IMG/VR virus record: IMGVR_UViG_3300025646_000185
Span: 1 to 32,877 of that record
Strand: one strand, 5' to 3'
Length of the DNA: 32,877 bases
From: a virus
Positions 5,447 through 23,242 of this stretch are shown here, one piece after another. Numbering within the stretch: position 1 is the first letter of the stretch; every line of letters begins with the position of its first letter. The position numbers and the translations under genes are program-made. The notes under the pieces were generated by a model. The model was not told the origin of the DNA, made no database searches, and was given only the letters and a program-made list of their open reading frames with translations.

Positions 5447-6289
5447 ATGTATTATCCTAAATCTCAAATAAAAACAAATCTCTATACTGAGGATGAAAAA
5501 TATATTAGGAGTGATAATAACCAACCCTATAAAGGATATTACTATCAAACCTCTAAAGGGGAAAATTACACAGGTAGAACCCCAGAGGATGGTCCTAATA
5601 TACTATTAATACCTCGTTCCTCTATAGAAGAAACAGGACCATTATTTTCAATTCCAAATAATAACATTATTATTGGATCAAATAAATATTTAATTTTAAA
5701 AAATATTAATTCGGATCAAGTAAAAAATATCCCCCAAAATATATTTCCAACCCCACAACCTCAAGACTACATTAACGAATCATTTGTAAGGTACTTTGCT
5801 AAAAAACGAAATGAGAAAAAATATTTAGAAATAGATAAAGAAACTTATGATAAATTATTTTCACAAGATCCAACTTACCTATTTGAATTATACAAACCAT
5901 TAAAATTAAATTGGCAAATAAGTGGAGATAAAGCAAAAGCTTACCAAACTAATGAAACCCAAACATCATTATTAGCTCGTAGGGAAAGATTAGAAGGTTT
6001 TATTGAATACTTTAAAGGTAATTTTAATCAACTATATGCTTTATATACCCAAGGAAATACCTATGTAATAGCAAGTAATGGTCAATCTTACACAGGATTT
6101 TATCATATAATGTCTGATGGGCAAGTAATGACAGGAAAAAATCATACTAATAAAGGGATTAATCTAGTACTGAGAGAAGATTATGTAGAACAAGAACAAC
6201 CACTACTTAACCCAGGAATAGCATTAGGAACAGATTCAATTCAGTCAATAGATTCTGCAAATATTTCTAATAATATTACATTATTTTAA
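5447..6289 (+). CDS. Repeat-containing virion structural protein, unknown
   Basis: A 280-residue protein beginning one base after the peptidase-bearing gene and ending the structural run. It has a duplicated short module. QPYKGYYYQTSKGENYTGRT near residues 26-45 and QSYTGFYHIMSDGQVMTGKN near 213-232 share the order xxYxGxYxxxxxGxxxTGxx. Such YxGxY modules occur in phage structural proteins, often in host-contact or tail-associated parts. No enzyme motif is visible. The C-terminal 30 residues are Ser/Asn-rich and low in complexity. A structural role follows from context and the operon; the exact function is unknown. Confidence 0.6.
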   Translation: MYYPKSQIKTNLYTEDEKYIRSDNNQPYKGYYYQTSKGENYTGRTPEDGPNILLIPRSSIEETGPLFSIPNNNIIIGSNKYLILKNINSDQVKNIPQNIFPTPQPQDYINESFVRYFAKKRNEKKYLEIDKETYDKLFSQDPTYLFELYKPLKLNWQISGDKAKAYQTNETQTSLLARRERLEGFIEYFKGNFNQLYALYTQGNTYVIASNGQSYTGFYHIMSDGQVMTGKNHTNKGINLVLREDYVEQEQPLLNPGIALGTDSIQSIDSANISNNITLF

Positions 6290-6299
6290 TTTTTTTTCA

Positions 6300-6310
6300 T
6301 ATATTTATAG
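6300..6310 (+). promoter_or_regulatory. Candidate late promoter TATATTTATAG
   Basis: The box TATATTTATAG follows an eight-T run and lies 39 nt before the ATG at 6350. Almost the same arrangement (T run, TATATTTATAG, CAAATAA) occurs at 8621 before the other MKDFDL gene. No TTTG sits 20 nt upstream, unlike the early-type promoters in this window, so it may be read by a phage-modified polymerase. Inferred from recurrence only. Confidence 0.45.
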
Positions 6311-6311
6311 C

Positions 6312-6346
6312 AAATAACAAATAACAAATAACAAATAACAAATAAC
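6312..6346 (+). repeat. Five tandem copies of AAATAAC in a 5' leader
   Basis: Five perfect 7-bp units fill the space between the TATATTTATAG box and the ATG at 6350. The corresponding leader at 8632-8649 holds a decayed form (AAATAAT followed by AAATA units). A perfect short tandem array in a leader is prone to slippage and could change the spacing between promoter and start. Confidence 0.9.
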
Positions 6347-6349
6347 AAA

Positions 6350-6817
6350 ATGAAAGATTTTGATTTAAGAAAATACCTAGCTGAAGGTCGCTTATTAAAA
6401 GAAGTTACCTTTTACCAAGAAATGGAAACAGCTAACCCAGGATGGAATAAGGATTCTGTTATGGATTTTATAGAAGATGAATATGAAAAACAAGCAGATT
6501 GGGATTCTGATGTTGACGTTAGTGGAGATTACGAAGAGCATCAAGAATACTTAAAAGATACTGAAGCTCTTTTCAATAAGTTAGAATCCGGATCTTCAAC
6601 AGTAAAAGTTGGTGATAAAATCTCATTTTTTTCTAAAAGTGATAATAGTTGGATGGATGGTACCATTACTGGAGAAACCCTTATGAAAGGTAACTTTATG
6701 TTTTCTGGCAATGTCCTTCCAGATAACATTCCTGCTTGGGTAATAAAAAGTGATGAATCGGGTTTTAAAACTTCTTATCCTAAATATCAAGAAGGAAAAA
6801 TGTTTAAAAAAAAGTAA
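6350..6817 (+). CDS. Putative internal head protein with capsid-targeting-like leader
   Basis: A 155-residue acidic protein. Its first 12 residues, MKDFDLRKYLAE, are almost the same as MKDFDLKKYLKE of the gene at 8650, although the remainders look unrelated. The T4 internal proteins begin with a comparable short leader (MKTYQEFIAE in IPIII, from memory), which directs them into the prohead and is cut after (L/I)xE by protease gp21. Here LAE at residues 10-12 and LKE at 16-18 fit that consensus. After the leader lies an acidic helical stretch and a beta-rich part with VKVGDKISFF. An internal, injected protein is an inference; no function is recognised in the mature part. Confidence 0.6.
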   Translation: MKDFDLRKYLAEGRLLKEVTFYQEMETANPGWNKDSVMDFIEDEYEKQADWDSDVDVSGDYEEHQEYLKDTEALFNKLESGSSTVKVGDKISFFSKSDNSWMDGTITGETLMKGNFMFSGNVLPDNIPAWVIKSDESGFKTSYPKYQEGKMFKKK

Positions 6818-6906: not shown

Positions 6907-8169
6907 ATGTATTGGTTAGTTGAAAGTGAAGAACAATTAAAGGAATTTGAACAACAACAATATCAAGAGGTATTTGTTGAAGTTATTCCTTTTGATAATA
7001 GAGAACATCCTTATGAAAATGAGGTGTGTGCTGTTTATATTTTCCCGCTAAAATCAACTAAAGGATTTATATTACCCGTTTCCCATAGTGAAACATTATC
7101 GCTTAAATTAAGCGAGATAGAACGTATTTTAAACGCATTTGAAACGGTATATGTTAGGGATAAGAAAGAATTTATGCATTACTTTCTATTAAAAGCTGTT
7201 TACAACACCCCACCCTCCCCCAATACGTATATACAACCAACACAAGCACATAACTTTTTTTATAATAAATTTAAAACCAAAACCGATATAAATAGAATAA
7301 TACCCATTGTTAAACACTATGAGTATTGTAATACTGTTTATGATGCGATAAAACCAAATATAGGAAAAAATGTCAACGAATTTTTCAACACAAAAGCCTG
7401 TTTGGTGTACAACAAGTTGGAGAAAAGTGGAATACGAATTGATAAAGAAAAATTTAGTTCGTACTTTTACTCTACCGATAGAGAGTATGTTTACACCCAA
7501 TACAACCTCAACACACTTACTACAAGACCATCAAATAAATTCAAAGGAGTAAATTATGCAGCCCTCAATAAAGATAACGGGGAACGAAAATCTTTTATCC
7601 CGAGTAATGATTATTTTATTGATTTTGATATTAGTGCCTACCATCCTACTATTTTATCTAGGTTGGTCGATTATAGTTTTGATAATGGAGATATTTATGA
7701 TGCTCTTAGTGAAGCTTATCAGATGGATAGAGAAGAGGCAAAAATCTTAACTCTAAAACAAATTAATAGTTCTGCTTTAACTGAATATGAGAATTTAGAA
7801 TTTTTTAGAAAAGTAACTGCTTTTAAAGATAAATTGTGGAATGAATTTCAGTATGGGGGTTATGTGGAGGTACCAATTTCAAATCATAGGTTTTATAGAA
7901 GTGAGTTAGAGAATATGAATCCTGGAAAACTGTTGAATTATGTTTTGCAGGCTACAGAGACGGCTTTGAATGTAAAATTAATGTGGGAGATATTTAGAGT
8001 TTTGAGGGGTAAAAAAACTAAATTAATATTAGTGGTATATGATTCATTTTTGTTTGATGTAGATAAGGAGGAGAAACAAACCGTAAAAGAAATATTAGAG
8101 ATATTTAAAAAATATAAATTAAGTGTAAAATTTAAACAAGGAATAAGTTATGATTTTAATGGAAAATAG
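6907..8169 (+). CDS. Small family A DNA polymerase
   Basis: A 420-residue protein with the family A polymerase blocks in order. LEKSGIRID (171-179) corresponds to the helper segment before the palm. TTRPSNKFKGVNYAAL (205-220) resembles the TGRLSSxxPNLQNIP block. Motif A is FIDFDISAYHP with Asp241. Motif B is shortened, with Arg275 and Lys279 in REEAK. QATETALNVKLM (348-359) corresponds to the QGTAAD helix. Motif C is VVYDSFLFDV with Asp379. The N-terminal part resembles the Pol I exonuclease fold, but the first DxE has become VEV (24-26), so proofreading there is probably lost. It is much shorter than Pol I (928 residues). The overlapping gene at 8150 may be a partner. Confidence 0.8.
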   Translation: MYWLVESEEQLKEFEQQQYQEVFVEVIPFDNREHPYENEVCAVYIFPLKSTKGFILPVSHSETLSLKLSEIERILNAFETVYVRDKKEFMHYFLLKAVYNTPPSPNTYIQPTQAHNFFYNKFKTKTDINRIIPIVKHYEYCNTVYDAIKPNIGKNVNEFFNTKACLVYNKLEKSGIRIDKEKFSSYFYSTDREYVYTQYNLNTLTTRPSNKFKGVNYAALNKDNGERKSFIPSNDYFIDFDISAYHPTILSRLVDYSFDNGDIYDALSEAYQMDREEAKILTLKQINSSALTEYENLEFFRKVTAFKDKLWNEFQYGGYVEVPISNHRFYRSELENMNPGKLLNYVLQATETALNVKLMWEIFRVLRGKKTKLILVVYDSFLFDVDKEEKQTVKEILEIFKKYKLSVKFKQGISYDFNGK

Positions 8170-8611
8170 TCATATGTATGACGTAGAACAGGGGTGGAAT
8201 TCACCCATAAACCAGATTGATTTGGAGAATAGACTAGTGTGTACTTTTTCTACTTTAAATGAAGTAGAGAATGTAGTGGGTTACATAAAGTCTACTTATG
8301 ATATAAAGTATAATAAAATGTTTATACTTCATGTTCAGAGTAATGACGAGTATGCCGTTACGTATAACGTAGAACAGGGTAATGTAAGCAATCTGCCTGA
8401 AAATACTATTTTAGTTCATAGAAAGAAAGATTCAAATACTTTATATACGATAAATGCTTTGAATGAGTTAATTAAGTCTTTAAATGGGGGGGTAGTTGAT
8501 ACTAGGTTTCCTATAGAATGGAAACACTATAGAAATACTATTTTACTTACCCAACATAATGAGTTAAAGCAGTTGAAAACAAAAATACATAAAATTATTG
8601 ATTTGAATTGA
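8150..8611 (+). CDS. Unknown protein overlapping the polymerase gene
   Basis: A 153-residue protein with no recognised family. It overlaps the last 20 bases of the polymerase gene in another frame. In-frame ATGs also occur at 8162 and 8174, so the true start is uncertain. The C-terminal half has a distinctive block, NTILVHRKKDSNTLYTINAL, followed by a helical basic tail. I recall similar blocks in proteins of marine T4-like phages but cannot give them a function. The overlap suggests coupled translation with the polymerase, which makes an accessory replication role possible but unproven. Confidence 0.65.
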   Translation: MILMENSHMYDVEQGWNSPINQIDLENRLVCTFSTLNEVENVVGYIKSTYDIKYNKMFILHVQSNDEYAVTYNVEQGNVSNLPENTILVHRKKDSNTLYTINALNELIKSLNGGVVDTRFPIEWKHYRNTILLTQHNELKQLKTKIHKIIDLN

Positions 8612-8620
8612 TTTTTTTTG

Positions 8621-8631
8621 TATATTTATAG
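8621..8631 (+). promoter_or_regulatory. Candidate late promoter TATATTTATAG
   Basis: The same T run plus TATATTTATAG plus CAAATAA arrangement as at 6300, placed 18 nt before the ATG at 8650. An ATTG lies 20 nt upstream, so a weak housekeeping-type reading is also possible. Confidence 0.45.
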
Positions 8632-8649
8632 CAAATAATAAATAAATAA

Positions 8650-8934
8650 ATGAAAGACTTTGACTTAAAAAAATACCTTAAAGAAGGTAAATTGTATGAG
8701 ATTGAGTCTTTAGATGATATTAAGTCTATAGAGGTTACTTACACTGAACGTGGGCGTTTTTATAAAATTGATGTTGAATATAAAGATGGTTCTAGTGATA
8801 ATTTTAAAGATATAAATGCTTTAGGTATTGATTTGCCTTATCGTTATAGTAATTCTAGTTTAGAAAAAATTGCTAAAGAAATGGAGCAAAAAGGTATTAT
8901 GTTTAATTATAATGATGCTTTTGATCCTTCTTAA
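8650..8934 (+). CDS. Putative internal head protein with capsid-targeting-like leader
   Basis: A 94-residue protein that begins MKDFDLKKYLKEGKL, matching the leader of the gene at 6350 in 10 of the first 12 residues; after the leader the two proteins differ. The (L/I)xE cleavage consensus of the T4 prohead protease is present as LKE at 10-12 and LYE at 15-17. The remainder (about 77 residues) is mixed alpha/beta, with IKSIEVTYTERGRFYKIDVE. The two genes share promoter box, leader repeat type and N-terminus, so they look like members of one regulated set. Packaging into the head is inferred from analogy with T4 IP proteins. Confidence 0.6.
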   Translation: MKDFDLKKYLKEGKLYEIESLDDIKSIEVTYTERGRFYKIDVEYKDGSSDNFKDINALGIDLPYRYSNSSLEKIAKEMEQKGIMFNYNDAFDPS

Positions 8935-15376: not shown

Positions 15377-16049
15377 AATTACATTTATATCAGATACACA
15401 TACTAAACACGAACTATGTGAAGCAGATTTACCAGGTGGTGATATCTTAATCCATTCTGGTGATATTATGGGTAGTGGTTATCGGTGGACTGAGTTACAA
15501 GACTTTTTATATTGGTTTAATAGTTTAGATCAATACAAACACAAAATCTTTATTGCTGGTAATCATGATAGATTGTTTGAATCAAATTACAATGATGTTA
15601 CCCAAATGGTTAGAGAGTATCCAAATATTAATTACTTACAAGATTCATTTTGTAATATTGAAGGATTAAGAATTTGGGGTTCACCATGGCAGCCTGAATT
15701 TTTTGATTGGGCATTTAACTTACCACATAATGGTGAAGATTTAAGAGAGAAGTGGAGTTTGATTCCAAACCCAATTGATATCTTAGTGACTCACGGGCCT
15801 GCTTTCGGTCATTTAGACATATCAGGTTATGGTAATCAGAATGTAGGTTGTGAATTACTTAGAGAACGAATTAATGTAGTAAAACCATTAATACATTGTT
15901 TTGGACATGTTCATGGAAGTGCAGGTTATAAGTTTGATGGAACAACTCATTATTTTAATGCTTCAGTATTAGATGAAAGATATGAGTATAGAAATAAACC
16001 AATGACAATTGATTTAGATTTAGAAACAAGAGAAATAGAATTTGTATGA
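15366..16049 (+). CDS. Calcineurin-like metallophosphoesterase (MPPED-like)
   Basis: A 227-residue protein with ISDTHTKH (8-15), LIHSGDIMGSG, IAGNHDRLFE, LVTHGPAFGHLD and CFGHVHGSAGY, the full metal-ligand set of the metallophosphoesterase fold. The layout (early SDTH, HGPxxGHLD, GHVHxxxGY) matches the MPPED1/239AB-type subfamily, whose members hydrolyse phosphodiesters such as 2',3'-cyclic nucleotides in vitro. It is unlike the 10488 enzyme in sequence, so the phage carries two distinct ones. The start overlaps 15164 by 11 bases, and the stop overlaps the next ATG (ATGA). A role in RNA-end processing is inferred. Confidence 0.85.
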   Translation: MKNRITFISDTHTKHELCEADLPGGDILIHSGDIMGSGYRWTELQDFLYWFNSLDQYKHKIFIAGNHDRLFESNYNDVTQMVREYPNINYLQDSFCNIEGLRIWGSPWQPEFFDWAFNLPHNGEDLREKWSLIPNPIDILVTHGPAFGHLDISGYGNQNVGCELLRERINVVKPLIHCFGHVHGSAGYKFDGTTHYFNASVLDERYEYRNKPMTIDLDLETREIEFV

Positions 16050-16477
16050 AAGAATATCTAGTTAAAGTTTACGAAGACAGGACAGAGTGGTACCTAAACG
16101 GCAAACTTCACAGAGAAGATGGTCCTGCCATTGAATGGGCTGATGGTGATAAATCATGGTACTTAAATGGTAAACTTCATCGAGAAGATGGACCAGCTCG
16201 TGAATGGGCTAGTAGTGGTAAATCATGGTGGTTAAACGATAAACGCCACAGAGAAGATGGTCCTGCCATTGAATGGGCTGATGGTAGTAAATCATGGTTC
16301 TTAAACGGTAACCGTCATAGAGAAGACGGCCCTGCAATTGAATGGGCTGATGGTAGTAAAGAATGGTGGATTGAAGGCAAGCGATTAACCGAAACTGAGT
16401 TCAATCAAAGAACAAAATCATGCTCAGGTAAGATAGTAGAAATAGATGGTAAAAAGTACAAATTAACTGAGTTATGA
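16046..16477 (+). CDS. YwqK-like repeat protein (four 23-residue repeats)
   Basis: A 143-residue protein. After MKEYLVKVYEDRTE come four repeats of 23 residues of the form WYLNGKLHREDGPAxEWADG, then a cap WWIEGKRLTETEFNQ and a conserved tail ending KIVEIDGKKYKLTEL. The repeats resemble the MORN-like YwqK family, sometimes annotated as an antitoxin component, but there is no toxin partner here. Two near copies follow at 17888 and 18247, with the first 75 bases of this gene almost identical to 18247. Strong DNA similarity between repeats would allow copy-number change by recombination. Function unknown; a binding surface is the usual expectation for such repeats. Confidence 0.75.
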   Translation: MKEYLVKVYEDRTEWYLNGKLHREDGPAIEWADGDKSWYLNGKLHREDGPAREWASSGKSWWLNDKRHREDGPAIEWADGSKSWFLNGNRHREDGPAIEWADGSKEWWIEGKRLTETEFNQRTKSCSGKIVEIDGKKYKLTEL

Positions 16478-17867: not shown

Positions 17868-17887
17868 CAATGTTAAAAAATAAAGTT

Positions 17888-18250
17888 ATGAAAGAATATC
17901 ATGTAAAAGTTTACGAAGACAGGACAGAATGGTTCTTAAACGGTAAACGCCACAGAGAAGATGGTCCAGCTCGTGAATGGGCTGATGGTGATAAATCATG
18001 GTATCTTAATGGTCAACTTCACCGAGAAGATGGACCTGCCTATGAAGGGGCTAGTGGTACTAAATCATGGTTTATTAATGGTCAACGCCACCGAGAAGGA
18101 GGCCCTGCCATTGAATGGGTTGATGGTAGTAAAGAATGGTGGATTGAAGGCAAGCGATTAACCGAAGAAGAATTCAACCAGAGAACAAAATCTTGTAACG
18201 GAAAGATAGTAGAAATAGATGGTAAGAAATACAAATTAACAGAGGTATGA
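17888..18250 (+). CDS. YwqK-like repeat protein (three 23-residue repeats)
   Basis: A 120-residue paralogue of 16046 with three repeats (WFLNGKRHREDGPAREWADG, then a variant ending YEGASG, then one with HREGGPAIEWVDG), the cap WWIEGKRL and the common tail. The ATG at 17870 is only three bases after the -7 box, so the ATG at 17888, which gives the same MKEY start as the paralogues, is chosen. The first 25 codons are close to those of 16046 and 18247. The stop overlaps the ATG of 18247. Confidence 0.75.
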   Translation: MKEYHVKVYEDRTEWFLNGKRHREDGPAREWADGDKSWYLNGQLHREDGPAYEGASGTKSWFINGQRHREGGPAIEWVDGSKEWWIEGKRLTEEEFNQRTKSCNGKIVEIDGKKYKLTEV

Positions 18251-18678
18251 AAGAATATCTAGTTAAAGTTTACGAAGACAGGACAGAGTGGTACCTAAAC
18301 GGTAAACTTCACAGAGAAGATGGTCCGGCTCGTGAACGGGCTGAGGGTACTAAAGCGTGGTACCTAAATGGCAAACTTCACAGAGAAGATGGTCCAGCTC
18401 GTGAATGGGCTGATGGTACTAAAGAATGGTGGTTAAACGGTGAACTTCATAGAGAAGATGGTCCTGCCATTGAATCAGCTAATGGTAGTAAATCATGGTG
18501 GTTAAACGGTAAACTTCACAGAGAAGACGGCCCAGCTCGTGAATGGGCTGATGGTTATAAATTATGGTTTCTAAACGGTAAAGAATTAACCGAAGCTGAG
18601 TTTAATCAAAGAATAAAATCTTGTAACGGAAAGATAGTTGAGATTGATGGTAAAAAATACAAATTAACAGAAATATGA
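18247..18678 (+). CDS. YwqK-like repeat protein (four 23-residue repeats)
   Basis: A 143-residue third paralogue with four repeats. They carry more substitutions in the EWADG part (ERAEG, EWADG, ESANG, EWADG), and the end is WFLNGKELTEAEFNQR. The N-terminal 75 bases match 16046 almost exactly, so the two genes share a recent origin or gene conversion. The LHREDGPA core is strongly conserved, whereas the residues after it vary between repeats, as expected if these vary the binding surface. The stop overlaps the lipoprotein gene's ATG. Confidence 0.75.
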   Translation: MKEYLVKVYEDRTEWYLNGKLHREDGPARERAEGTKAWYLNGKLHREDGPAREWADGTKEWWLNGELHREDGPAIESANGSKSWWLNGKLHREDGPAREWADGYKLWFLNGKELTEAEFNQRIKSCNGKIVEIDGKKYKLTEI

Positions 18679-21438: not shown

Positions 21439-22137
21439 ATGAAAGATATAGTTAGATTGTTTTGGTATTCATTACTGTTTTTTGCTCTTGCAAGTTGTGA
21501 AAAACATGACCCTTATGCTGATACCCCTGAAACTGCTTGTCCTGGGGGAGAGTGTGAATATAGTTTTAAAATTAACCCCCAACAACAACCCAATGCCTAC
21601 TTAGATGAAGAAGGTTATTGGCATGTTTATACTGGAGGTCTTCGATATTTTCAAATTATTGGTGAATTAGAAGAACCCTATGATTTTTACCACATAAATG
21701 AGATACCAGATGTAAGTACAGCAATGGATTCAGATTATTGGGTAACCTTTGGTAACATTTCATTTACTACCCCCATGTACGGTATTTTAAGTTGGTATAG
21801 TACCCCAGGCATGAATACCCCTTTACCTATAGGAGATACAACTTATACTATTAATGAATTAATTTTAAATGATCAATCCATTACTAACTTAGTAGGATAT
21901 GAAATTACCCCTAATACTTGTTTAGATTGTCCCTATTCTAGTGGTTTATTTGCAGTTTATTCTAAATATAATACTCATCCTACATTTAATATTTTTAACT
22001 TAGGTGAATTGAAAGGTGATACTGCTACTTTTTTTATAGAAATTAGTTATGCTTATGAATGGCAATATTCAATGAATACTCATGCCTCTAATGCAAATGT
22101 AACTTATAAAACTGATTTAAAAGTAATTTTTGAATAA
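21439..22137 (+). CDS. Lipoprotein of 232 residues, unknown role
   Basis: The frame opens at 21397, but the ATG at 21439, just after the upstream gene, gives a clean lipoprotein signal: MKDIVRLFWYSLLFFALASC, lipobox LASC with Cys20. The mature part starts with EKHDPYADTPETACPGGECE, containing two further cysteines and a CPGGEC motif, then a beta-rich body and one more CLDC pair (about residues 182-185). Paired cysteines suggest disulphides outside the cytoplasm. Phage lipoproteins in other systems (for example Llp of T5) block receptors against superinfection; a similar role is inferred only. It ends before a hairpin at 22145. Confidence 0.7.
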   Translation: MKDIVRLFWYSLLFFALASCEKHDPYADTPETACPGGECEYSFKINPQQQPNAYLDEEGYWHVYTGGLRYFQIIGELEEPYDFYHINEIPDVSTAMDSDYWVTFGNISFTTPMYGILSWYSTPGMNTPLPIGDTTYTINELILNDQSITNLVGYEITPNTCLDCPYSSGLFAVYSKYNTHPTFNIFNLGELKGDTATFFIEISYAYEWQYSMNTHASNANVTYKTDLKVIFE

Positions 22138-22144
22138 TTTACAT

Positions 22145-22165
22145 AGCCTATCAATTTGATAGGCT
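22145..22165 (+). terminator. Hairpin, possible weak terminator
   Basis: An 8-bp stem AGCCTATC / GATAGGCT with loop AATTT, eight bases after the lipoprotein gene. The stem is good, but there is no T run after it (CCTAAAAATAATAG), so it may terminate weakly or stabilise the mRNA 3' end. Confidence 0.5.
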
Positions 22166-22180
22166 CCTAAAAATAATAGA

Positions 22181-22330
22181 ATGAAAAAAATTGATCTTAT
22201 TATTAATATAACAGCAATAATTGCTGGGATTACAAATTTTTATTTTCCTAATCTTATAAGCTATTGGTTAGTTTCATTTAGTTTAGGGTGGTGGTTAGGA
22301 AGTATTATAATTGATTTAAAAAAAGGATAA
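22181..22330 (+). CDS. Small two-helix membrane protein
   Basis: A 49-residue protein starting MKKIDLIINITAIIAGITNF, with two hydrophobic helices (about residues 5-20 and 27-44, the second with LVSFSLGWWLGSIII) and a basic end DLKKG. It resembles in size and layout the small membrane proteins at 13668 and 13881. It lies between a hairpin and the promoter of the replication block. Function unknown. Confidence 0.5.
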   Translation: MKKIDLIINITAIIAGITNFYFPNLISYWLVSFSLGWWLGSIIIDLKKG

Positions 22331-22335
22331 TAAAA

Positions 22336-22367
22336 CTTGTATTTTATAATTATAATTCGTATATTAC
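22336..22367 (+). promoter_or_regulatory. Promoter for the replication block
   Basis: CTTG at 22336-22339, 20 nt, TATATTAC at 22360-22367; one mismatch from TTTG and one or two from TAnnTTTR. It lies 32 bases before the SSB gene at 22400. No other promoter was seen between 22400 and 29466, so it may serve several replication genes. Confidence 0.6.
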
Positions 22368-22399
22368 TGTATATAAACATTAAAAATTAATAACAAATT

Positions 22400-23242
22400 A
22401 TGGATTTAAATGTAATTAAAGCCCGCTTGGAATCACTGAACAAGCAATCAAACAGCAGTGGAAGTGGAGGTAATAACAAAAATATTTTTTGGAAACCCTC
22501 AATAGGTAAACAAACAATTCGTGTTGTTCCTTTTAAGTATAATAAATCAAACCCTTTTACTGAAATGCAGTTTTATTATGGGATTGGTTCTAAAAAAGTA
22601 ATGGCATCACCTTCAAATTGGGGTGAAAAAGATCCTATTGCTGAATTTGCAAAACAACTTCGTGGTACTAATGATAAGGAAAATTGGCGTTTAGCTAAAA
22701 AACTTGATGCTAAAGTTCGTGTTTTTGCTCCTATTATAGTTCGTGGTGAAGAATCTGAAGGAGTTAGATTATGGCAGTTTGGTAAAGAAATTTATCAAGA
22801 ATTTTTAAATATGGCTGCTGATGAAGAAGTAGGTGATTTCACTGATATCCTTTCAGGTCGTGATATTAAATTAACAACCGTGGGTCCGGAAGTTACTGGT
22901 ACTAAATACAATAAAACTTCAATAGGACCTTCAATGAAGATTACTACATTAAGTGATGATGAAACTCTACTTCAATCATTACTTGATAACCAACCAGATC
23001 CTATGAAAGTATTTAAAGCTCTTTCTTATGATGAAATGAAACAAGCACTTCAAGAATGGTTATCACCTGAGGATAATGAAGAAGAAGGAGATATTGTTTC
23101 TGAGCCTGCTGAGGGTTTTGATTCAGATGAAAAAGAAGAAACTAAATCAAATTACTCATTAAACGTTAAATCAAAAACTACCAAAGCGGATGAGTTTGAT
23201 AAAATGTTTGATGGTGATGAAGATGATGATTTACCATTTTAA
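22400..23242 (+). CDS. T4 gp32-like single-stranded DNA-binding protein
   Basis: A 280-residue protein (T4 gp32 is 301). It has a basic, Asn/Ser/Gly-rich N-terminal arm, then a core with IFWKPSIGKQTIRVVPFKYN, FYYGIGSKKVMASPSNWGEK and VRVFAPIIVRG, matching the gp32 core fold. It ends in a strongly acidic tail (MFDGDEDDDLPF) of the sort that binds other replication proteins. The protein has no cysteine at all, so the zinc ribbon of T4 gp32 (three Cys, one His) is absent. It is the first gene of the replication block; UvsX follows after 10 bases, as expected for partners in recombination. Confidence 0.85.
   Translation: MDLNVIKARLESLNKQSNSSGSGGNNKNIFWKPSIGKQTIRVVPFKYNKSNPFTEMQFYYGIGSKKVMASPSNWGEKDPIAEFAKQLRGTNDKENWRLAKKLDAKVRVFAPIIVRGEESEGVRLWQFGKEIYQEFLNMAADEEVGDFTDILSGRDIKLTTVGPEVTGTKYNKTSIGPSMKITTLSDDETLLQSLLDNQPDPMKVFKALSYDEMKQALQEWLSPEDNEEEGDIVSEPAEGFDSDEKEETKSNYSLNVKSKTTKADEFDKMFDGDEDDDLPF

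What the first reader, a model, noticed from the sequence alone, without database searches (positions are those of the whole stretch)
6350..6400. Capsid-targeting-like leader shared by two otherwise different proteins
The genes at 6350 and 8650 begin MKDFDLRKYLAE and MKDFDLKKYLKE and then diverge. T4 internal proteins share a comparable N-terminal leader that sends them into the prohead and is removed by gp21 after (L/I)xE. LAE and LKE here fit that cleavage consensus at residues 10-12, and a second such site follows in both. Both genes also share the same promoter box and leader repeat. They may be proteins packaged in the head and injected into the host, a place where T4 keeps anti-restriction factors.
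Basis: partly seen in the sequence, partly recalled or inferred. Interest (0 to 1): 0.7.

Follow-up and report, generated by a model that had tools for sequence, protein, structure and literature searches.

The report
Prohead-targeting leader on phage cargo proteins
Two unrelated small proteins of a marine flavobacterial T4-type phage start with the same 17-18 residue tag; the same tag sits on about 80 different proteins of related phages, next to the genes that build and cut the phage head, and most likely sends them into the new head, so that they can be injected into the next host.

Summary
In detail: the genes at 6350 and 8650 share 9 of 11 residues after Met (shuffles reach at most 6), then diverge, and both carry two (L/I)xE sites (E12; E18 or E17). 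The leader is not private to this pair. A search on residues 1-10 finds it on about 80 body-distinct proteins of T4-superfamily phages. There the unforced residue 12 is E in 74/81, and a further (L/I/V)xE follows in 77/81 (shuffled mean 37). Leader genes fill the gap between prohead protease gp21 and scaffold gp22 in 18/25 loci, up to three in a row. The syntenic ortholog of the 6350 protein keeps the body (51% identity) but has another leader, joined at the predicted cleavage site; that leader contains the C-terminal motif of 15/16 gp22 scaffolds. Some ORFs hold two leader-cargo units. The nearest isolate, Flavobacterium phage immuto, has the same leaders plus gp21, gp22 and gp23.

Best reading: a capsid-targeting propeptide that works like that of T4 internal proteins but belongs to a different sequence family, with exchangeable tags. 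Packaging, cleavage, injection and cargo function are inferred, not shown. No cargo matched a convincing known family. New variant of a known kind.

The parts
6350..6817 (+). leader-bearing cargo gene 1 (155 aa)
   Evidence: ortholog with another leader in L148
6350..6403 (+). leader family A of gene 1: MKDFDLRKYLAEGRLLKE; predicted cleavage after E12 (codon 6383-6385) and E18 (codon 6401-6403)
   Evidence: sequence; conservation; leader/body junction at E18
8650..8934 (+). leader-bearing cargo gene 2 (94 aa)
   Evidence: identical copy in IMG/VR record 3300025655_000245
8650..8700 (+). leader family A of gene 2: MKDFDLKKYLKEGKLYE; predicted cleavage after E12 (codon 8683-8685) and E17
   Evidence: sequence
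6300..6349 (+). shared promoter-like box TATATTTATAGCAAATAAC and 7-mer repeat before gene 1
8621..8649 (+). same box with AAAT repeat before gene 2
5447..6289 (+). left border of cargo slot 1; relative of the last gene of phage immuto (gp032); same neighbour in L148
6907..8169 (+). family A DNA polymerase-like gene (immuto gp001, 36% identity): right border of cargo slot 1, left of slot 2
8150..8611 (+). relative of immuto gp002 (54% identity); followed by a leader-A gene in both phages

Best explanation
The first 17-18 residues are a capsid-targeting propeptide. Shown: they are a module independent of the body, conserved at protein level, ending in (L/I)xE sites, and placed on many unrelated small acidic proteins whose genes lie between gp21 and gp22 or in arrays elsewhere. 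Inferred: during head assembly the leader binds the gp22-type scaffold core and carries the protein into the prohead; the gp21-type protease cuts after LxE12 and/or LxE17/18, releasing the mature body; the body stays with the packaged DNA and enters the next host with it. The body varies freely because only the tag is needed for packaging. This works like T4 IPI-IPIII. Related phages use further tags for the same kind of cargo, including one (motif C, RMQKLAG[IL]) that copies the C-terminal tail of the scaffold. Bodies are probably early host-takeover or anti-defence factors (weakest step).
For: 1) The search fixed residues 1-10 only; residue 12 is E in 56/60 and then 74/81 body-distinct proteins, and a second (L/I/V)xE occurs in 77/81, mostly at E17-E19, against a shuffled mean of 37 (max 50). 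2) 257 Gb of prokaryotic genomes gave 3 pattern hits, none followed by LxE12; IMG/VR gave 47 and 72 stretches. 3) 18 of 25 gp21-gp22 intervals hold 1-3 leader genes, several overlapping the gp21 stop. 4) gp21 (PF03420) in 12/23 and gp23 (PF07068) in 10/23 leader-bearing records despite fragmentation, with GELDHP and SSRG motifs, and LxE-type sites in the N-termini of gp21, gp22 and gp23. 5) Leader swap on the syntenic ortholog of the 6350 protein...RLLKE|VTFYQEM versus ...TVLTE|NTFYQDM. 6) The swapped-in leader contains the tail motif of 15/16 gp22 proteins; 15 other ORFs carry it, 0.0 expected from shuffles; two of them start with leader A and end with the gp22 tail. 7) ORFs with an internal leader (L017, L038, L029). 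8) Synonymous codon variation in the leader. 9) Nearest isolate immuto has the same leaders and head genes, and a leader-A gene in the slot of window gene 8650 with an unrelated body. 10) T4 facts: gp21 cuts after L/I-X-E; the IPIII CTS is 10 residues, 4 and 7 for targeting, 8 and 10 for processing (PMC9026906); T4 ipII and ipIII start MKTYQEFIAEA.
Against: No virion proteome or cleavage data. The window is a fragment without gp21 or gp23. Leader A has no significant sequence match in isolate phages by tblastn and resembles the T4 CTS (MKTYQEFIAE) only by eye. In T4 the lysines of internal proteins contact the DNA (PMC3012670), whereas these bodies are acidic (mean -0.095 charge per residue, n=97, against -0.022). 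The loci were chosen for holding the leader, so the 18/25 figure is enriched. A well-conserved body (the CPxATQ Cys-rich protein) also occurs with no such leader in other phages, so the leader is not needed for every use of a body.
Confidence: 0.85

Rival explanations
1. The leader docks the proteins on another part of the virion (baseplate or tail), where they act without being cut.
For: The two window genes lie right behind baseplate genes.
Against: Many leader genes elsewhere sit beside gp21/gp22 or terL, not baseplate genes; the LxE sites are conserved beyond residue 10; one alternative leader equals the scaffold tail.
Confidence: 0.06
2. The leader is a prohead targeting signal that is not cleaved; LxE is kept because it is part of the scaffold-binding surface.
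For: T4 IPIII with Asp at position 10 is still targeted but not processed (PMC9026906), so targeting and cutting are separable.
Against: The second LxE drifts in position (E17 to E27) while staying present, as a protease site would and a fixed binding surface would not; the leader/body junction of the swap falls on it.
Confidence: 0.06
3. Plain paralogs: one gene family duplicated and the bodies diverged beyond recognition; the N-terminus is just the slowest part.
For: Tandem arrays of leader genes in some genomes.
Against: The same body occurs with unrelated N-termini and the same N-terminus with bodies of very different length (complete proteins of 67 to 1222 aa), so leader and body assort independently.
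Confidence: 0.04
4. The conserved segment is a translation or recombination element at the DNA/RNA level, not a peptide signal.
For: The two window genes share upstream sequence too.
Against: Codons vary synonymously across leaders (TTT/TTC 37/23 at F4; CTA/TTA/CTT at L15); upstream sequences of other leader genes differ; leaders also occur inside ORFs.
Confidence: 0.02

Closest known systems
T4 internal proteins IPI, IPII, IPIII and Alt with the capsid targeting sequence (CTS)
   Same: Short N-terminal leader shared by unrelated bodies; MK..(Y/F)... then aromatic-(I/L)-A-E; gp21-type protease and L/I-x-E sites; cargo set highly variable (PMC3012670, PMC12373910).
   Different: Leader is 17-18 residues or longer with two sites; not recognisable as homologous by search; very many bodies; tandem arrays; fused two-unit ORFs; acidic bodies; several exchangeable tag families.
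Giant phage (SPN3US, phiKZ) ejection proteins with propeptides cut by a gp21 relative
   Same: Glu-specific propeptide removal; two SPN3US proteins have identical N-termini while their bodies diverge (PMC5694885).
   Different: Several of those propeptides exceed 100 residues and phiKZ sites are S/A-x-E; here about 17-30 residues and L/I-x-E.
Flavobacterium phage vB_FspM_immuto (Immutovirus)
   Same: Nearest isolate: largely collinear with the window, about 20 related genes; MCP 60% identical to that of a leader-bearing contig; carries leaders A, B and C and gp20-gp21-gp22-gp23.
   Different: Its leader genes are annotated as hypothetical or misnamed (gp077 'cob(I)alamin adenosyltransferase'); no virion proteome found.

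Membership tests
T4-type internal head proteins (CTS bearers) | Short N-terminal leader shared by proteins with unrelated bodies | tested here: met
T4-type internal head proteins (CTS bearers) | Leader ends in a gp21-type (L/I)xE site | tested here: met
   E12 in 74/81, second site in 77/81; sequence level only
T4-type internal head proteins (CTS bearers) | Genome encodes a gp21 (S77) prohead protease and gp23 | tested here: inconclusive
   absent from the window fragment; present in 12/23 and 10/23 leader-bearing records and in immuto
T4-type internal head proteins (CTS bearers) | Leader homologous to the T4 CTS MKTYQEFIAE | tested here: inconclusive
   similar layout, but no significant match to any isolate phage by tblastn
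T4-type internal head proteins (CTS bearers) | Leader directs the protein into the prohead | not testable with these tools
   needs a packaging assay
T4-type internal head proteins (CTS bearers) | Leader removed by gp21; mature protein in the virion and injected | not testable with these tools
   needs virion mass spectrometry
GmrSD-type anti-restriction proteins (function of IPI-IPIII) | Inhibits a type IV restriction enzyme | not testable with these tools
   no convincing family match for 76 leader proteins; fold search of the 8650 model gave nothing clear

The most novel reading that the evidence does not exclude
These phages run an open cargo-loading code: several exchangeable short tags (A: MKxFDLKKYLAENKLLKE; B: MKxSELKxLIKEEI..LNE; C: the gp22 scaffold tail RMQKLAG[IL] moved to the N-terminus, the C-terminus or between domains of cargo) can be added to almost any protein to load it into the prohead, and protease sites then trim the tags and split multi-unit cargo polyproteins. 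Tag C would mean loading by scaffold mimicry.
Probability: 0.5. Interest if true: 0.75.

Novelty: new variant of a known kind. Interest (0 to 1): 0.62.

Why it matters
A tag that marks proteins for packaging turns dozens of 'hypothetical' marine phage genes into candidate injected effectors that can be listed from sequence alone. In T4 all three internal proteins are now known inhibitors of type IV restriction enzymes (PMC12373910), so the lists are candidate anti-defence genes against Bacteroidota hosts. The leader swap and the scaffold-tail tag give a direct handle on an open question: which part of the scaffold core or shell internal proteins recognise.

Tried and rejected
Leader by tblastn in isolate phages: no match, too short; found instead through gp23 and gp22 neighbours. 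PHROGs, Pfam and NCBIfam scans of window proteins and 76 leader proteins: only scattered weak hits. The body of 6350 in isolate phages: no credible hit. AlphaFold: 6350 protein mean pLDDT 40.9 with two sequences, not used further; 8650 protein 65.3, no Foldseek match with E below 0.1, VIA best Z 5.1, below the tool's own guide for trust. The 76 residues that remain of the 8650 protein after residue 18 equal the length of T4 IPI* (PMC3012670); taken as coincidence. Promoter core TATATTTAT as a mark of this gene class: rejected, it is spread over the window. Literature searches for this leader or for a gp22-tail tag found no description; the library lacks most subscription papers.

Full report
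Observation. The two ORFs exist where stated. Residues 2-12 agree at 9 of 11 positions; shuffling all window ORFs gives at most 6 in 300 trials. Beyond residue 15 BLASTP finds nothing shared. Both have two (L/I)xE sites: LAE12 and LKE18 in the 6350 protein, LKE12 and LYE17 in the 8650 protein. The 25-base box plus repeat upstream is unique to the two genes, but its core TATATTTAT is found seven times in the window.

The window. It is a 32,877-base virus record, 30% GC. About twenty of its genes have relatives in Flavobacterium phage vB_FspM_immuto_2-6A, largely in the same order and up to 77% identical. It holds no gp21 or gp23; in immuto those lie some 30 kb before the matching stretch. In immuto the polymerase-like gene and the gene after it (gp001, gp002) are followed by gp003, which starts MENFDLKKFLVENRLTYNSKLINE; window gene 8650 holds the same slot with an unrelated body.

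The leader is a module. A DNA pattern covering residues 1-10 hits 47, and in a looser form 72, stretches of IMG/VR, against 3 in 257 Gb of prokaryote genomes, none of them followed by LxE12. Widening to a protein pattern on residues 1-10 gave 81 body-distinct proteins. Residues 1-10 were forced by the search, so their conservation is no evidence; residues 11 on were not. E12 is present in 74/81, L15 in 76/81 and a second (L/I/V)xE in 77/81, against a mean of 37 and a maximum of 50 when residues 13-32 are shuffled. The second site lies at E17-19 in most and at E24-27 in the MKNFDLRKFLVENKLTxxSxLLKE subtype; a site that moves but stays is what a protease site should do. Codons in the leader vary synonymously.

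Head neighbourhood. In leader-bearing contigs the order is terL, portal, a few small genes, gp21, gp22, gp23. Of 25 distinct loci showing gp21 and gp22, 18 have one to three leader-A genes between them, 25 in all, several overlapping the gp21 stop codon. These loci were mostly picked for holding leaders, so the fraction is inflated, but the position itself was not selected for. In other contigs leader genes form arrays: seven pattern matches within about 3.3 kb in G002/G016 and a run of about eleven genes in G018 where leader A alternates with a second leader, MKHSQLKKLIKEEI...LNE. gp21 relatives keep the GELDHP and SSRG motifs, and gp23 N-termini carry LLE, LLEG, ILEN and QLV[TVAS]E sites; that the last corresponds to the T4 gp23 cleavage region is from my knowledge of gp23, not aligned here.

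Leader exchange. The 6350 protein has a syntenic ortholog in L148 (same neighbours on both sides, plus one more small gene). Its body is 51% identical from residue 15 on, but the leader is MKLLNEQFARMQRLAGLITESEYKTVLTE instead of MKDFDLRKYLAEGRLLKE; similarity resumes at the LxE. The new leader contains RMQ(K/R)LAG(I/L), which ends 15 of 16 distinct gp22 scaffolds, including those of immuto and of the more distant Microcystis phage Mel-JY01. Fifteen other distinct ORFs carry it, none expected from shuffles: at the N-terminus (immuto gp083 and others), at the C-terminus (among them two proteins that begin with leader A), or between domains just before an LNE. A second test used the conserved CPxATQ Cys-rich protein: 56 distinct N-termini precede the same body, about 17 of them leader A, others of ENWRxYLxE or LRDILLKE type, fused domains, or none.

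Fused units. L017 encodes one ORF with leader A at its start and again at residue 287; L038 has leader A at its start and a second one internally, and L029 has an internal one; the second unit is preceded by an LKE or LQE stretch. This argues against a signal that works only at the start of translation and fits cutting by the head protease, though lost stop codons cannot be excluded.

How it works. By analogy with T4, where the first 10 residues of IPIII suffice for packaging, residues 4 and 7 act in targeting, 8 and 10 in processing, and gp21 cuts after L/I-X-E (PMC9026906), the leader would bind the scaffold core, be cut after LxE, and leave the body in the head for injection. Scaffold contact is the part that the gp22-tail tag makes concrete, but no binding was tested.

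Cargo. Bodies are more acidic than other ORFs and lack convincing family matches; one immuto protein with leader B matches DUF5661 and weakly T4 RegB. T4 Ip1-3 share only their leader and each blocks a different GmrSD enzyme (PMC12373910). Immuto also carries 7-deazaguanine DNA modification genes (DpdA, QueC/D/E), a setting in which anti-restriction cargo would make sense. That remains a guess.

Verdict.

Noticed in passing
L046:2160-5287 and immuto gp072, gp080, gp094, gp095: Second leader family MK[HK]S[QE]LKxLIKEEI..LNE on consecutive unrelated small genes, interleaved with leader A genes.
   Followed up: partly
gp22 C-termini, e.g. L080:10240, L160:30868, L161:24970: Motif RMQKLAG[IL] ends nearly every gp22 and recurs at N-termini, C-termini and domain borders of other proteins.
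   Followed up: yes
L167-L246: CPxATQDLELNTKNRD Cys-rich protein (called high potential iron-sulfur protein) in over 580 viral stretches, with many different N-terminal tags, some of the form MKLLIENWRQYLSEE; next to capsid protease genes in an Actinomycetia phage (L145).
   Followed up: partly
window 16046-16477, 17870-18250, 18247-18678: Three paralogs made of short repeats (NGKLHREDGPAxEWADGxKSW), two of them beginning with the identical MKEYLVKVYEDRTEWYLNGK.
   Followed up: no
window 6907-8169: 420-aa protein matching only the C-terminal part of the DNA polymerase PHROG; immuto has two separate family A polymerase genes (gp001, gp199), possibly a split polymerase.
   Followed up: no
NC_055915 gp067 and gp077 (L160:29627-30868 and 21632-22633): Probable misannotations: gp067 'DNA polymerase phi-like' is the gp22 scaffold; gp077 'cob(I)alamin adenosyltransferase' is a leader-A protein.
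   Followed up: partly
window 8150-8169: The ORF at 8150 overlaps the end of the polymerase-like ORF by 20 bases.
   Followed up: no
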